Shown here: piece after piece, positions 41,439 to 46,463 of the stretch
How the letters are laid out: each line of letters opens with the position of its first letter
Position numbering within the stretch: position 1 is the stretch's first letter
Assembly (NCBI RefSeq): GCF_009184635.1
Contig: NZ_WELI01000001.1
Location: forward strand, 310,001-374,000
Length of the DNA stretch: 64,000 bases
DNA from: Rudanella paleaurantiibacter
GTDB taxonomy: Bacteria; Bacteroidota; Bacteroidia; Cytophagales; Spirosomataceae
Direction of reading: 5' to 3'
Notes under the pieces: model-generated
The model's input: the letters and a program-made list of their open reading frames with translations, nothing else
What the model was told of the DNA's origin: nothing
Database searches by the model: none
Position numbers and translations under genes: made by a program

Positions 41439-42430
41439 AAAAACCATACCTCTCGGTTGTTGTGGGGGTGTACAACGAGGCCGGCAACATTGCCCCGCTT
41501 ATCAGTCAGCTGAGCGCGGCCCTCGAACCCGTCGATTACGAACTGATTTATGTGAACGACGGCTCGACCGATGCCACACTGACCGAGCTGAAGGCGATGG
41601 CTCATCCGCGTTTGACGGTGCTGGATTTACAAAAGAACTACGGGCAAAGTCTGGCTCTGGCTGCCGGTATCGACGCAGCCACGGGGGCCTTTATCGTCAC
41701 GATGGACGGCGATGGCCAAAACGACCCGACCGATATTCTGCGGATGCTCGAAACTGCCGAACGGCAGGACGTAGATCTGGTCATGGGTATTCGGCAGGCC
41801 CGGCAGGATGGGTTCTGGCTCCGAAAACTGCCCAGTCAACTGGCCAATGCGCTGGTGCGTTGGGTGCTCAAAGCGCCTGTGCAGGACAATGGCTGTGGCA
41901 TTAAGCTGTTTCGGGCTGAGCTGGCCAAGTCCATCGGGCTCTATGGCGAGATGCACCGGTTTGTGGGTATTCTGGCCTATCTGGAGGGGGCGCGGATCGT
42001 ACAAGTGCCTGTGCGGCATCATGCCCGCACCATTGGCCAGTCGAAATACGGTCTGAGCCGCACCTTTCGGGTGTTGAGCGATCTCATTTACCTGTATTTC
42101 CTGAAACGCTACCGGCACAAGCCCATGCACCTGTTTGGAGGGCTCAGCTTGTTGCTGGCCACCGTGGGGGCATTGCTGTGGGTTGGGCAGGGGCTGGGTT
42201 TCCGGTCCGAATCGTTCAGTTTGGTCACGTTGGGTGCGGTGGCCATGCTGGGGAGCCTGCAACTGGCTGGTATGGGGTTGCTGGCTGAGGGTCAGCTACG
42301 TACCTATCACGAATCGCAGGGGAAGAAGCCGTACCGGGTTCGGCGGGTGTTCAGGGCTTCGGGCGGGTCAGGTCGGTCAGTCGCTGCCCCTGTTGCCGCC
42401 CCCATCGCAACTGCTTGGCCTGCCCAATAA
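41435..42430 (+). CDS. Membrane GT2 (DPM1/ArnC/GtrB-like)
   Basis: 331 residues. The N-terminal GT-A domain has LSVVVGVYNEAGNIAPL, YVNDGSTDAT and MDGDGQNDP. Further C-terminal are VRHHARTIGQSKYGLSR and two membrane helices (LFGGLSLLLATVGALLW, LVTLGAVAMLGSLQLAGMGLL). This family makes polyprenyl-phosphate sugars. One product could feed the GT39 enzyme at 21.4 kb (inference). The last ~20 residues (Ala/Pro-rich) lie in an 80-bp convergent overlap with the CLC gene and look non-native. Confidence 0.92.
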   Translation: MKKPYLSVVVGVYNEAGNIAPLISQLSAALEPVDYELIYVNDGSTDATLTELKAMAHPRLTVLDLQKNYGQSLALAAGIDAATGAFIVTMDGDGQNDPTDILRMLETAERQDVDLVMGIRQARQDGFWLRKLPSQLANALVRWVLKAPVQDNGCGIKLFRAELAKSIGLYGEMHRFVGILAYLEGARIVQVPVRHHARTIGQSKYGLSRTFRVLSDLIYLYFLKRYRHKPMHLFGGLSLLLATVGALLWVGQGLGFRSESFSLVTLGAVAMLGSLQLAGMGLLAEGQLRTYHESQGKKPYRVRRVFRASGGSGRSVAAPVAAPIATAWPAQ

Positions 42431-43655
42431 CCTGCGCGCCGTAGATACCCCGGTGCCCGGTGCACAGGTACGCCACTACGCAGGCAATAGCTACGTAAGG
42501 GCCGCAGGCTACGCCAAACAGTTCGAGCGCCATCAGAATGCAGGCCAGGGGGGTATTGGCCGCCCCGGCAAATACAGCTACAAAGCCCATACCGGCCAGC
42601 AGGGCCGTGGGTAAGGGGAGCCAGGCCGAGAGGGCACTGCCCAGCGTGGCCCCGATAAAAAACAGGGGAGTAACCTCGCCCCCTTTGAACCCGGCACCGA
42701 GCGTAAGGGCTGTAAACAGGATTTTGAGGATGAAATCGGCAGGCGAAAGGGTCTGCTCAAACGATTCGACAATAACTGGTACGCCCAGGCCAATGTAGCG
42801 CGTACTGCCGAGGGCCCACACGGCTCCGGCTACCAACGTACCGCCCACCAGCGGCCGGAGGGGTGCAAACGCCAGCCGGGCTTTGAATGCCCGCCCGATG
42901 CGGTGGGTCAGGGTGCTGAACAGGATAGCCGTTGCCCCAAAGACAAGGCCCGCCAGAGCCGCATAGAGCGCGTAGGCGGGCGTGAGGTCGGGCACGGCCG
43001 GGATGTGGTAATGGGTATGCCCAACCTGCCACCACCGCGTGACGTAATCGGCCCCAATAGCCGCAGCAAAGGCCGGAAACAGGGCCTCGTAACTCAGCCG
43101 ACCCACCAGAAACACTTCTAAGCCAAATATCGCCCCGGCCAGCGGAGTACCAAACACCGAGCCGAACCCCGCACTGATACCCGCAATGAGCAGGAGCCGA
43201 CGGTCGCGGGGGCGCAGGCGAAACACGGGCGTAAGCCGGTCGGCAATAGCCCCACCCAGTTGTAGGGCCGTACCCTCGCGCCCGGCCGAGCCCCCAAACA
43301 GGTGCGTACCCACCGTACCGATCAGAATGAGCGGTGCCATCCGAAACGGAATGGGCGACCGGGGCCGGTGAATGGTTTCGAGGAGCAGATTGTTGCCACC
43401 TTCGACCGACCGCCCCCAGTAGTGATACATCAGCCCAATTAGAAAGCCGCCGAGGGGCAGCAGGGCAATTATCCAGGGGTTCGATTCGCGCCAGTTGGTG
43501 GCCCAGTCGAGGGCGACGAGAAACAGAGCCGAAGCCGAGCCAACGCCTACCGAAAGGAGCGTACAGATGACCAGCCACCGCGTAATAAAAACGAGAGAGG
43601 GAGCCCACCGGGCCAGAGCCGTCAGGGAATCAACAGGAGAAAGACGAGCCGCCAT
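42351..43655 (-). CDS. CLC family anion transporter, fluoride-type (CLC-F) features
   Basis: 434 residues with the CLC duplicated helical fold. The gating-glutamate motif is GSAGREGT (Glu127) rather than the common GREGP. The site normally GSGIP is GGNNLL (86-91). The later motif is GGEVTPLFFIGA (325-330 and on) in place of GxFxP. As known from the literature on fluoride/proton CLC antiporters, these deviations mark the CLC-F clade. It likely exports fluoride, though a general chloride transporter cannot be excluded. The 3' end overlaps the convergent GT2 gene by 80 bp. No fluoride riboswitch pattern was seen upstream. Confidence 0.85.
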   Translation of the reverse strand: MAARLSPVDSLTALARWAPSLVFITRWLVICTLLSVGVGSASALFLVALDWATNWRESNPWIIALLPLGGFLIGLMYHYWGRSVEGGNNLLLETIHRPRSPIPFRMAPLILIGTVGTHLFGGSAGREGTALQLGGAIADRLTPVFRLRPRDRRLLLIAGISAGFGSVFGTPLAGAIFGLEVFLVGRLSYEALFPAFAAAIGADYVTRWWQVGHTHYHIPAVPDLTPAYALYAALAGLVFGATAILFSTLTHRIGRAFKARLAFAPLRPLVGGTLVAGAVWALGSTRYIGLGVPVIVESFEQTLSPADFILKILFTALTLGAGFKGGEVTPLFFIGATLGSALSAWLPLPTALLAGMGFVAVFAGAANTPLACILMALELFGVACGPYVAIACVVAYLCTGHRGIYGAQVIGQAKQLRWGRQQGQRLTDLTRPKP

Positions 43656-43786
43656 AGAGGGTATTAAATTACAATATTCTCCCGCAAAGCCCCGCGCCTT
43701 TATGCGGCAGCGGCCGACCGTCGGGGATATAATCGGGGCGCCCCGTGGCGGATCAACGCGCCCGAATGGGTGTAAGGTTCTGTGCG

Positions 43787-43933
43787 TCAGACTGGTGGGT
43801 TAGTGTCTTTCGAGATAAGATACCGGACGTATGCCGAAAAGTTAAGACCTAACTTTTTAGCCGCTTCTTCGGCCTGCTTATGTAGACTTGGGTTCATACG
43901 AACCAAATAGGCTTTTTGAGTTTCCTTTTCCAT
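43787..43933 (-). CDS. Small ribbon-helix-helix DNA-binding protein next to TnpB
   Basis: 48 residues, read directly from the sequence. It begins MEKETQKAYLVRMNPSLHKQ and continues AEEAAKKLGLNFSAYVRYLI. The pattern is one beta strand (KAYLVRMNP) then two helices, the Arc/MetJ/CopG fold that binds operators as dimers. It is transcribed away from the tnpB gene, and its ATG overlaps the left arm of a 17-bp inverted repeat, the kind of site such proteins bind. It may repress itself and tnpB, or be an orphan antitoxin. No toxin partner is visible on the other side. Composition is AT-richer than its neighbours. Confidence 0.75.
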   Translation of the reverse strand: MEKETQKAYLVRMNPSLHKQAEEAAKKLGLNFSAYVRYLISKDTNPPV

Positions 43934-43974
43934 ATCACTTGCAAATATATATCATAAATATTTGCAAGTGATAT
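43932..43974. promoter_or_regulatory. Perfect 17-bp inverted repeat between the RHH gene and tnpB
   Basis: ATATCACTTGCAAATAT (43932-43948) and its exact reverse complement (43958-43974) enclose a 9-nt spacer. It lies in the only gap between divergent starts, overlapping the RHH start codon. It may be an operator for the RHH protein. Alternatively it is the left-end subterminal hairpin of the insertion element. The two are not exclusive. Confidence 0.65.
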
Positions 43975-43996
43975 ATAAATGATATACAATTGCGTA

Positions 43997-45145
43997 ATGA
44001 TTCAGACGGTCCGCCACGCGGTCAAAACATACCGCTATAAACTTAACCCTACCCCGAGCCAGCAACAGGCATTGGGGCAATGGTTAGGCGCGTGTCGGTA
44101 TATTTATAACCTGACACTGGACTACAAAAATACTCTTTGGGGACAGCATAAAGTGAGCATTGGCAAGAATGAGATTCAAAAAGAACTTACTCCAATTGCC
44201 AAAGAAACAGCGTGGATTGGTTGTGTTCACTCGCAGACGTTGCAGGACGTAACCGACCGCGTATTCAATGCGTATGATGGATTCTTTAAACAGGGCAAGG
44301 GTTTTCCCAAGTTCGCCCGGAAGGGTCAGTATCAATCCTTTTCGTTTAAGCAGGGCGTTAAGATCAACTCTACGCACGTTCAGCTACCCAAGCTTGGAAA
44401 GATCAGATACCGCAATAGTCAACCTTGTACGGGAACCGGAACGCCGGACCGAATCAAACGGGCTACCGTTCGGGAACGTGCGGACGGGTGGTATGTATGC
44501 CTGTGTGTGGAAACATACATTGAGCAACTATCCGAAACATCGGCAAGTATTGGTATCGACGTTGGAATCAAAAGCCTTTTAGTCACCTCGAACGGTGAAA
44601 CAATTGAGAATCCCAAACACCTCTACAAAGCTGAGAAGAAATTAAAGCGTCTGCAACGGTTGGTGAGCCGCAAAAAGAAAGGGTCTGCCAATCGCAAAAA
44701 GGCCGTTCAGAAGTTAGCCCGTCAGCATCAGAAGGTAGCCAACACCCGCAAAGACTTTCACCATAAGCTAACGACCCGGCTGATTAGAGAGAACCAATCT
44801 ATATCCGTCGAGCAGTTGCAGATTAAGAATATGTTAGGGAATCACCATCTGGCAAAATCCATATCGGATGCTGGTTGGTACTCGCTAACCCAAATGCTCG
44901 AATATAAGGCCTGTTGGTATGGCCGGACGTTTGAGAAGGTCAATGCCCGTCACACCTCGCAGGATTGTTCGGAGTGTGGCTATCGCAATACAGACCTGAC
45001 ACTTTCGGTTCGGGAGTGGATTTGCCCTGAATGTGGGGTAACGCACGAGCGGGACGTGAACGCAGCAACCAATATAAAGAATAGGGCGGTAGGGCATACC
45101 GCACGGGAGACCCCGCGTCTCTCAGCTTGTGGAGTCCGGCGTTAG
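43997..45145 (+). CDS. tnpB: TnpB, RNA-guided endonuclease (IS605 OrfB)
   Basis: 382 residues (ATG at 43997, beginning MIQTVRHAVKTYRYKLNPT; an ATG at 43979 adds six residues). The RuvC nuclease residues all look present: Asp188 in GIDVGIKSLL, Glu272 in SVEQLQIKNM, Asp353 in ERDVNAATNIK. A zinc ribbon, CSECGYRN then CPECG, sits between the last two. The N-terminal helix-turn-helix and basic bridging region are intact. TnpB uses the RNA from the element's right end to cut a target beside its TAM. It appears full length and active. Confidence 0.95.
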   Translation: MIQTVRHAVKTYRYKLNPTPSQQQALGQWLGACRYIYNLTLDYKNTLWGQHKVSIGKNEIQKELTPIAKETAWIGCVHSQTLQDVTDRVFNAYDGFFKQGKGFPKFARKGQYQSFSFKQGVKINSTHVQLPKLGKIRYRNSQPCTGTGTPDRIKRATVRERADGWYVCLCVETYIEQLSETSASIGIDVGIKSLLVTSNGETIENPKHLYKAEKKLKRLQRLVSRKKKGSANRKKAVQKLARQHQKVANTRKDFHHKLTTRLIRENQSISVEQLQIKNMLGNHHLAKSISDAGWYSLTQMLEYKACWYGRTFEKVNARHTSQDCSECGYRNTDLTLSVREWICPECGVTHERDVNAATNIKNRAVGHTARETPRLSACGVRR

Positions 45146-45194
45146 TTGGACGTTGAAGCAAGAATCCCCGTGCCTTTAGGCCGGGGAGTGTCAA
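45146..45194 (+). ncRNA. Right-end hairpin/omega RNA scaffold 3' end of the TnpB element
   Basis: After the tnpB stop comes GAATCCCCGTGCCTTTAGGC followed by CGGGGAGTGTCAA. This is the well-known right-end stem of IS605-type elements and the 3' part of the guide RNA scaffold. The stem TCCCCG/CGGGGA is at 45165-45170 and 45182-45187. The guide would then be the ~16-20 nt immediately after GTGTCAA, i.e. from about 45195. The 5' part of the RNA probably overlaps the tnpB 3' end. Confidence 0.7.
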
Positions 45195-45776
45195 AAAAAA
45201 TAACTCCCGGCCAGCAGGTCGGGAGCTATCTGGTAACCCTACAGTACGCTTCAATGGCAAAATCAACTCACAGACAACTTCATAACGTTGAGTCATCTGC
45301 GTGACTGATCGGGCTCGACTCAAAACAGAAACACCAGGTAATATAAAGTCTCTTAGTACTTTTTGCCGGTTGGCTTCGGCATACGGGGGGGACTTTATTT
45401 GGTTTGGCAAACTAACCATTTGCCTGTTAGAAGAAGCTTACACTTTCCTTAGAAAAAGCTTAGAAATTAGCCCCATTTTGGGACTGTAGTTTTAATTTTA
45501 AGGTTATAATAAATTGGTTTACAGATAATTACTTATATTGTTTTGCTCTGGGTGTCCGAACCCGTCACATAGCGCGCCCTTCGGGCGTTTGAAAGAGAAA
45601 GATACCTTTGTTTTCAGTACTGTACGTTGGGCAATAGATAATATTCCCCGATATGAGAGAGGATAGAGGTCCAGTATCCAGCGTCTGATATCTTTACTGG
45701 TTCCTGTAACGAAACAAAAGGCTACTGAATTACGAAGGCTGGGCCGGTGCTGTACCGGCCTGTATGATGCCGCACT
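45195..45776. other. Gene-free region after the TnpB element
   Basis: About 580 bp. A hairpin at 45204-45225 (CTCCCGG and CGGGAG) is followed, read leftward, by TTATTTTTTTTGACA, so it looks like a minus-strand terminator, but no leftward gene is obvious to its right. A long minus-strand frame crossing the element end is judged accidental. Near 45603 TACCTTTG fits a -7 box and could drive the response regulator. The part around 45490-45540 is AT-rich. A short GC hairpin (GCGCCCTTCGGGCG) lies at ~45574-45587. Confidence 0.5.
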
Positions 45777-46463
45777 ATGAAAACGATTCTGATTATTGAA
45801 GACGACCGCCGTATTGCTCAGAATATCAGTCGGGGCCTTGCCGCCGAAGGGTATCAGACCGAAATAGCGTACGAAGGGTACAACGGGCGTGATTTGGCCT
45901 TGCAACAGCCGGTCGATCTGGTTATTTTAGATATTAACCTGCCCGGCCTCAACGGGTTTGAGGTATGCCGCAACCTGCGGTCGGCCAAGCCGCACCTGCC
46001 CATTATCATGCTCACGGCTCTGGGCGAAGTGGAAGACAAGGTGGAAGGGCTGGAACGCGGGGCCGACGACTATATGGTGAAGCCTTTCGACTGGCGGGAG
46101 CTGAGCGCCCGGGTGGCTACCTGCCTCCGGCGGTCGGAGCGGCTCAACGCCAACATTGCCGATGAGGTGGTGCGGATCGCTAACCTGACCGTGAACCTGA
46201 CCGCCAAAGATGTGTACCGCGATACCCAGCGTATTGACCTGACGGGGAAGGAGTTTCGGTTGCTGGAGGAACTGGTGCGGAACCGGGGCCGGGTAGTGAC
46301 CAAAGCCGATCTCGCCGAGCGTGTATGGAGCCTCAACTTCGACCCAGGAACTAACGTGGTAGAGGTGTACATCAACTATTTGCGGAAGAAAATTGACAAG
46401 GATTTTGAGCCCAAGCTGATCCATACCCGGTCGGGGCTGGGTTATGTGCTTAAAGTAGACTAA
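45777..46463 (+). CDS. OmpR/PhoB-type response regulator
   Basis: 228 residues. The receiver domain (1-115) has the acidic pair IIEDD, phospho-acceptor Asp52 in VILDINLPGLNG, Thr in LTALGEV and Lys in YMVKPFDW. The winged-helix DNA-binding domain (~135-228) has LTGKEFRLLEELV and GTNVVEVYINYLRKKID. It is followed 34 bp later by a cognate histidine kinase. Target genes are unknown. Confidence 0.95.
   Translation: MKTILIIEDDRRIAQNISRGLAAEGYQTEIAYEGYNGRDLALQQPVDLVILDINLPGLNGFEVCRNLRSAKPHLPIIMLTALGEVEDKVEGLERGADDYMVKPFDWRELSARVATCLRRSERLNANIADEVVRIANLTVNLTAKDVYRDTQRIDLTGKEFRLLEELVRNRGRVVTKADLAERVWSLNFDPGTNVVEVYINYLRKKIDKDFEPKLIHTRSGLGYVLKVD

What the first reader, a model, noticed from the sequence alone, without database searches (positions are those of the whole stretch)
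43787..45194. RHH regulator divergent from an intact TnpB across a perfect 17-bp inverted repeat
A 48-residue ribbon-helix-helix protein, the 17-bp inverted repeat and a full-length TnpB form one compact unit. In IS605 elements tnpB usually comes with tnpA or alone. An RHH gene whose start codon overlaps the palindrome suggests a self-controlled switch that also represses the TnpB nuclease. Alternatively it is an orphan antitoxin at the insertion point. The RHH gene is short enough to be missed by standard gene calling.
Basis: partly seen in the sequence, partly recalled or inferred. Interest (0 to 1): 0.72.

Follow-up and report, generated by a model that had tools for sequence, protein, structure and literature searches.

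The report
TnpB transposon with regulator replacing transposase
A small jumping DNA element carries its usual RNA-guided DNA cutter (TnpB), but the place normally held by its transposase gene is taken by a tiny DNA-binding protein that probably keeps the cutter switched down, and this pairing has arisen more than once in related bacteria.

Summary
The window holds a 1522-bp IS608-type (IS200/IS605 family) element at 43673-45194, starting after a TTAC target and ending in TCAA. It encodes a full-length TnpB with catalytic residues kept and, divergent from it, a 48-residue CopG/HicB-like ribbon-helix-helix (RHH) protein. A relative in the same genus (G157) has the precise empty site without the RHH gene, so the RHH gene is inside the element. 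The same layout occurs in Spirosomaceae G192, in Fibrella forsythiae, and in Hymenobacter copies that pair the RHH gene with a TnpB only 31% identical, in different flanks. Two sister elements, G192 (RHH) and G202 (Y1 tnpA), align at the left end and from tnpB to the right end and differ only in that slot: an RHH gene in place of tnpA. The RHH coding sequence is under strong purifying selection. The 17-bp palindrome is beyond chance but private to this copy; what recurs is a motif between the -33 and -7 boxes of the tnpB promoter. Best reading: a transposase-less TnpB element whose RHH protein represses itself and tnpB. Repression is inferred, not shown. No description of this pairing was found in the library searched.

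The parts
43669..43672 (+). TTAC target/left cleavage site (CL), also the expected TnpB target-adjacent motif
   Evidence: Same tetranucleotide as IS608 CL (PMC5934647); empty site in G157 reads TTAC then AAAAAATAACTCCC
43673..45194 (+). whole IS608-type element, 1522 bp
   Evidence: Exact insertion relative to the G157 empty site
43686..43726 (+). left end: guide AAAG (43686-43689) followed by an imperfect hairpin (about 43690-43726)
   Evidence: Sequence; GL AAAG as in IS608; ssDNA fold is not better than shuffles here, so the hairpin is weakly supported in this copy
43787..43933 (-). RHH (CopG/HicB-like) protein, 48 aa
   Evidence: Pfam HicB above cut-off; dN/dS 0.05-0.10 in the RHH comparisons with measurable dS; best structural matches CopG, NikA and Arc with non-significant E-values
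43942..43949 (-). putative RHH promoter -7 box TATATTTG
   Evidence: Matches the Bacteroidota TAnnTTTG consensus (own knowledge); the TATATTTG next to the start codon recurs upstream of the Hymenobacter RHH genes
43932..43974 (.). perfect 17-bp inverted repeat with a 9-bp loop, only in this copy
   Evidence: not conserved in G192 or G113
43962..43992 (+). putative tnpB promoter TTG-20-TACAATTG with tandem TGATATA boxes 11 bp apart (43969-43975, 43980-43986) between -33 and -7: likely operator
   Evidence: Aligned in G000, G192 and G113 with the same 20-bp spacing; statistics of the tandem alone are weak
43997..45145 (+). TnpB RNA-guided endonuclease, 382 aa
   Evidence: NF040570/NF038281, Pfam OrfB_IS605 + Cas12f1-like_TNB; RuvC Asp, Glu, Asp and zinc ribbon line up with a TnpB-related solved chain
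45075..45194 (+). omegaRNA 3' region overlapping the tnpB end
   Evidence: Conserved stems in 6 relatives; 9 of 27 pairs changed on both sides with pairing kept
45162..45194 (+). right end: guide GAAT (45162-45165), hairpin 45165-45187, cleavage site TCAA 45191-45194
   Evidence: GR GAAT / CR TCAA as in IS608; hairpin z = -3.5
45195..45214 (+). flank expected to serve as the TnpB guide (AAAAAATAACTCCCGGCCAG); identical to the G157 empty-site sequence next to TTAC

Best explanation
This is a non-autonomous IS608-type (IS200/IS605 family) element in which a small CopG/HicB-like RHH gene occupies the slot of the transposase gene tnpA, between the left end and tnpB. Shown from sequence: the boundaries, that the RHH gene is inside, the recurrence, the tnpA/RHH exchange between sister elements, and selection on the RHH protein. 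Inferred: the element moves with a Y1 transposase supplied in trans, and TnpB plus its omegaRNA cuts empty TTAC sites to keep the element in the genome. Inferred: RHH dimers bind side by side in the roughly 60-bp gap between the two genes, covering the stretch between the -33 and -7 boxes of tnpB and the overlapping RHH promoter, so that the RHH protein represses itself and holds TnpB/omegaRNA expression low until it is diluted, for example after entry into a new cell.
For: Empty site without the RHH gene in G157, exact to the base. Hymenobacter copies Hyon (plasmid) and G580a are the same 1291-bp element in different flanks, TTAC|...TCAA|, with the RHH gene inside; G580b is a diverged third copy. 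The same divergent layout occurs in G192 and Fibrella forsythiae. G192 (RHH) against G202 (tnpA): left 62 bp 81% identical, tnpB to right end 77% identical, only the middle differs. RHH-linked TnpBs are not one clade (p-AU 0.00014), so the pairing arose or was exchanged more than once. RHH dN/dS 0.05-0.10. In G000, G192 and G113 the tnpB promoter keeps TTG-20-TAnnTTTG (or near) with TTTGCAA and (T/C)(G/A)ATAT repeats in the spacer. In Hymenobacter a block GTATGTTGTTT(C)GTAT is shared between TnpB-linked and TnpB-free RHH genes although synonymous sites are near saturation.
Against: No binding or expression data. The tandem-repeat statistic is weak for single copies (p 0.011 in G000, 0.0008 in G113, 0.16 in G192). 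Promoter boxes themselves explain part of the conservation. A 522-bp derivative in G192 keeps LE, RHH and RE but no TnpB, so the RHH gene may have a use beyond repressing a TnpB in cis. The pairing is rare (RHH relatives in 5 of 222 family genomes), so the advantage is not universal.
Confidence: 0.6

Rival explanations
1. The RHH protein is an accessory DNA-binding factor for transposition: it binds near the left end and helps a Y1 (HUH) transposase acting in trans, as RHH proteins such as NikA, MobC and TraY help HUH relaxases.
For: RHH sits in the tnpA slot next to the left end; Pfam NikA-like is the second match; NikA is among the top structural and sequence matches, none significant; RHH is kept in a TnpB-less derivative with both ends; Y1 transposases exist elsewhere in all five genomes checked.
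Against: The shared DNA block is between the two promoters, not at the left end; IS605 ends act as single-stranded hairpins, whereas RHH proteins bind duplex DNA; TnpA alone suffices in IS608 (known biology).
Confidence: 0.15
2. The RHH gene is a passenger or former plasmid regulator, captured by the element, that acts on genes elsewhere (plasmid copy control or gene silencing that favours the carrier), and repression of tnpB is incidental.
For: A TnpB-free relative lies on a plasmid next to a replication initiation gene, others beside a shared unknown gene; the Hymenobacter operator-like block is shared with TnpB-free RHH genes; RHH is retained without TnpB in L007.
Against: The divergent position over the tnpB promoter and repeated pairing with different TnpBs suggest that the tnpB promoter is a direct target.
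Confidence: 0.2
3. Orphan antitoxin or neutral gene that happened to lie at the insertion point.
For: HicB-family match; no toxin partner next to it.
Against: Empty site lacks the RHH gene; same gene inside elements at unrelated sites; purifying selection; no HicA found in G113 and G580.
Confidence: 0.03

Closest known systems
IS608 / IS605 (IS200/IS605 family, tnpA and tnpB divergent)
   Same: CL TTAC, CR TCAA, GL AAAG, GR GAAT, right-end hairpin, TnpB plus omegaRNA, no target duplication; sister element G202 keeps tnpA in the same slot
   Different: No tnpA; an RHH gene in its place
TnpB-only elements (IS1341-like)
   Same: TnpB without tnpA, presumably mobilised in trans
   Different: Carries a second, selected gene for a DNA-binding protein with its own divergent promoter
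CopG / Arc-type RHH repressors
   Same: About 45-50 aa, small plasmid or phage autorepressors; best structural matches of the model (non-significant E-values)
   Different: Inside a TnpB transposon; no copy-control role shown
HicAB toxin-antitoxin (HicB RHH)
   Same: Pfam HicB match of the RHH part
   Different: No HicA partner in the element; only the RHH part is present
TldR, nuclease-dead TnpB-like regulators
   Same: TnpB-derived locus with a link to transcription control
   Different: Here TnpB keeps its catalytic residues and the regulator is a separate RHH protein

Membership tests
IS200/IS605 (IS608 group) | Insertion 3' of TTAC, ending TCAA, no target duplication | tested here: met
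   Exact empty site in G157; IS608 values from PMC5934647
IS200/IS605 (IS608 group) | Guide tetranucleotides AAAG (left) and GAAT (right) at the foot of subterminal hairpins | tested here: met
   AAAG 43686-43689, GAAT 45162-45165; right hairpin z -3.5, but left hairpin not better than shuffles
IS200/IS605 (IS608 group) | Y1 transposase tnpA in the element | tested here: not met
   No tnpA in 43673-45194; two Y1 genes elsewhere in the genome. TnpB-only members of the family lack it too, so the claim is 'transposase-less derivative', not an autonomous IS608
Active TnpB nuclease | RuvC Asp/Glu/Asp and zinc ribbon | tested here: met
   Aligned with a TnpB-related solved chain of the 8bf8/8h1j group
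Active TnpB nuclease | omegaRNA at the 3' end of the element | tested here: met
   Conserved and covarying stems in 6 relatives; transcription not tested
RHH (CopG/MetJ/Arc) superfamily | Short strand then two helices; sequence match | tested here: met
   Pfam HicB over cut-off; model has the two helices, pLDDT 73, strand modelled as helix in the monomer; top matches CopG, NikA, Arc, all with E > 1
HicAB toxin-antitoxin | HicA toxin gene next to it | tested here: not met
   None in the element; none found in the G113 or G580 genomes
TldR | Loss of RuvC catalytic residues | tested here: not met
   Residues kept
Autorepressor | Binds own promoter and lowers transcription | not testable with these tools
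   Only motif conservation

The most novel reading that the evidence does not exclude
A distinct class of TnpB element in which tnpA has repeatedly been replaced by an RHH repressor, so that repressor and RNA-guided nuclease form a self-contained retention module: the repressor keeps the nuclease low in an established carrier, and dilution or loss of the element releases TnpB to cut empty sites.
Probability: 0.3. Interest if true: 0.75.

Novelty: new variant of a known kind. Interest (0 to 1): 0.56.

Why it matters
How TnpB expression is controlled in IS200/IS605 elements, and what selects for TnpB elements without a transposase, are open questions. Here sister elements exist that differ only in whether one slot holds tnpA or a repressor-like gene. 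That makes the regulation of an RNA-guided nuclease inside a transposon directly testable with a 1.5-kb DNA.

Tried and rejected
Orphan antitoxin: rejected by the empty site and the lack of HicA. The 17-bp palindrome as conserved operator: rejected, not present in G192 or G113. Single origin of the RHH/TnpB pair on the TnpB tree: rejected (p-AU 0.00014); on the RHH tree it is unresolved because 48 columns give no support. Known RNA families: none at gathering threshold in the window or in three loci. Phages and viral contigs: no RHH relatives; TnpB relatives in viral contigs have no RHH gene upstream. PDB by sequence: nothing convincing for the RHH profile; the one E < 0.01 match is made of short repeats, none significant alone. 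Literature: no paper in the held library links TnpB with a ribbon-helix-helix or CopG gene in such an element; most subscription papers and ISfinder are not held. The genome-contig scan uses short exact peptide patterns and found only Fibrella, so absence there means little.

Full report
What is there. The window (G000:C12:310001-374000) holds a 48-aa RHH ORF at 43787-43933 (-), a perfect 17-bp inverted repeat at 43932-43948/43958-43974 and a full-length TnpB ending at 45145. The repeat is far beyond chance (0 of 5000 shuffles). Each gene is single-copy in the genome.

The element. A same-genus genome, G157, carries the two flanks joined directly: window 42002-43672 continues at 45195, reading TTAC|AAAAAATAACTCCCGG. 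The inserted piece is therefore 43673-45194 (1522 bp) and the RHH gene came in with it; G157 has no RHH gene elsewhere at the threshold used. The ends match IS608: left cleavage site TTAC, guide AAAG, guide GAAT, right cleavage site TCAA (PMC5934647). The right hairpin is strong (z -3.5); the left one is not stronger than shuffles in this copy. The 3' 120 nt hold conserved stems with nine pairs changed on both sides across six relatives, as expected for an omegaRNA.

Recurrence. In 222 genomes of the family, RHH relatives occur in 5 and close TnpBs in 15. The two lie divergent and adjacent in G000, G192 and G113 (Fibrella forsythiae). In Hymenobacter, the H. yonginensis plasmid NZ_CP115397 and genome G580 carry three copies of a 1291-1321-bp element with the same order: left end, RHH, TnpB, right end. 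The plasmid copy and G580a share the sequence inside TTAC|...TCAA| and nothing outside, so these are separate insertions. Their TnpB is 31% identical to that of the window. An order sample of 390 genomes gave beyond these only weaker RHH matches without TnpB next to them, and a phylum sample of 395 genomes found only the window's own.

The swap. G192 (RHH) and G202 (Y1 tnpA) are neighbours on the TnpB tree. They align over the left 62 bp (81%) and from tnpB to the right end (77%), and differ only in the segment between: RHH in one, tnpA in the other. Holding RHH-linked TnpBs as one clade is rejected (p-AU 0.00014). The RHH gene was therefore gained, or the left module exchanged, more than once. 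The direction of each exchange is inferred from tnpA being the general IS605 state.

A real gene. RHH dN/dS is 0.09 (G000/G192), 0.08 (G580a/G580b) and 0.05 (G455/G576); TnpB is at 0.10 for G580a/G580b. These are short genes with synonymous sites near saturation, so the ratios are rough. In the script the G192 TnpB reading stops after 20 codons, so its TnpB figures there are not usable; G192 tnpB has a frameshift near its 5' end. A 522-bp derivative in G192 (L007) keeps both ends and the RHH gene but no TnpB.

Likely operator. In G000, G192 and G113 the tnpB promoter reads TTG-20 bp-TAnnTTTG or near it (promoter consensus from general knowledge), and the 20-bp spacer holds two similar boxes 11 bp apart, TGATATA...TGATATA in the window. 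Alone this is weak statistically. In Hymenobacter a block GTATGTTGTTT(C)GTAT is shared between TnpB-linked RHH genes and TnpB-free RHH genes, although synonymous sites are near saturation (pS 0.80 for G455/Hyon). The 17-bp palindrome itself is private to the window copy.

Mechanism. Most likely the RHH protein binds between the two divergent promoters and represses itself and tnpB. Shown: position, conservation, selection. Inferred: binding, repression, and the benefit (low nuclease level in an established carrier, release on dilution). Transposition would need a Y1 transposase in trans; two Y1 genes exist elsewhere in the genome, whether they act on these ends is unknown.

Standing. By its ends the element belongs to the IS608 group, without tnpA. 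The RHH protein is CopG/HicB-like but not part of a HicAB pair. TnpB keeps its catalytic residues, so it is not a TldR. No paper in the held library was found to report such a pair.

Noticed in passing
L007 (G192), reverse strand, about 522 bp from TTACGATAAAGG to GTGTCAA: An IS605-type element with both ends and an RHH gene but no TnpB: a small non-autonomous derivative whose left end resembles that of a different TnpB clade (L024). The RHH gene is kept.
   Followed up: partly
L010 (G110), L009 (G183, reverse), L014 (G201), L058 (viral contig): Close TnpB relatives without RHH or tnpA lie downstream of a same-strand gene whose C-terminus shares a motif (ETYxYLYRRL...YG...SxLDAIERYGHLDKxY). 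This may be a second recurrent TnpB partner.
   Followed up: no
L033:1428-2477 (-), Hymenobacter TnpB P0001: The usual RuvC-II glutamate position reads VVGNV instead of xxExL; a glutamate at VNES further on may be a relocated catalytic residue, as described for some TnpB/Fanzor clades (from memory).
   Followed up: no
L012 / L003 (G192): tnpB has a frameshift near its 5' end while the adjacent RHH gene is intact.
   Followed up: partly
window 43673-45194: The element sits in the intergenic region between a divergent chloride-channel-like gene (42351-43655, -) and a response regulator (45777-46463, +), so it separates their upstream regions.
   Followed up: no
L028 (G455) and L035 (G576): TnpB-free RHH genes with a conserved unknown neighbour (about 160 aa, ...LGELRQHV...LFSEAEQLRANHFVHE...), probably a plasmid gene pair.
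   Followed up: no
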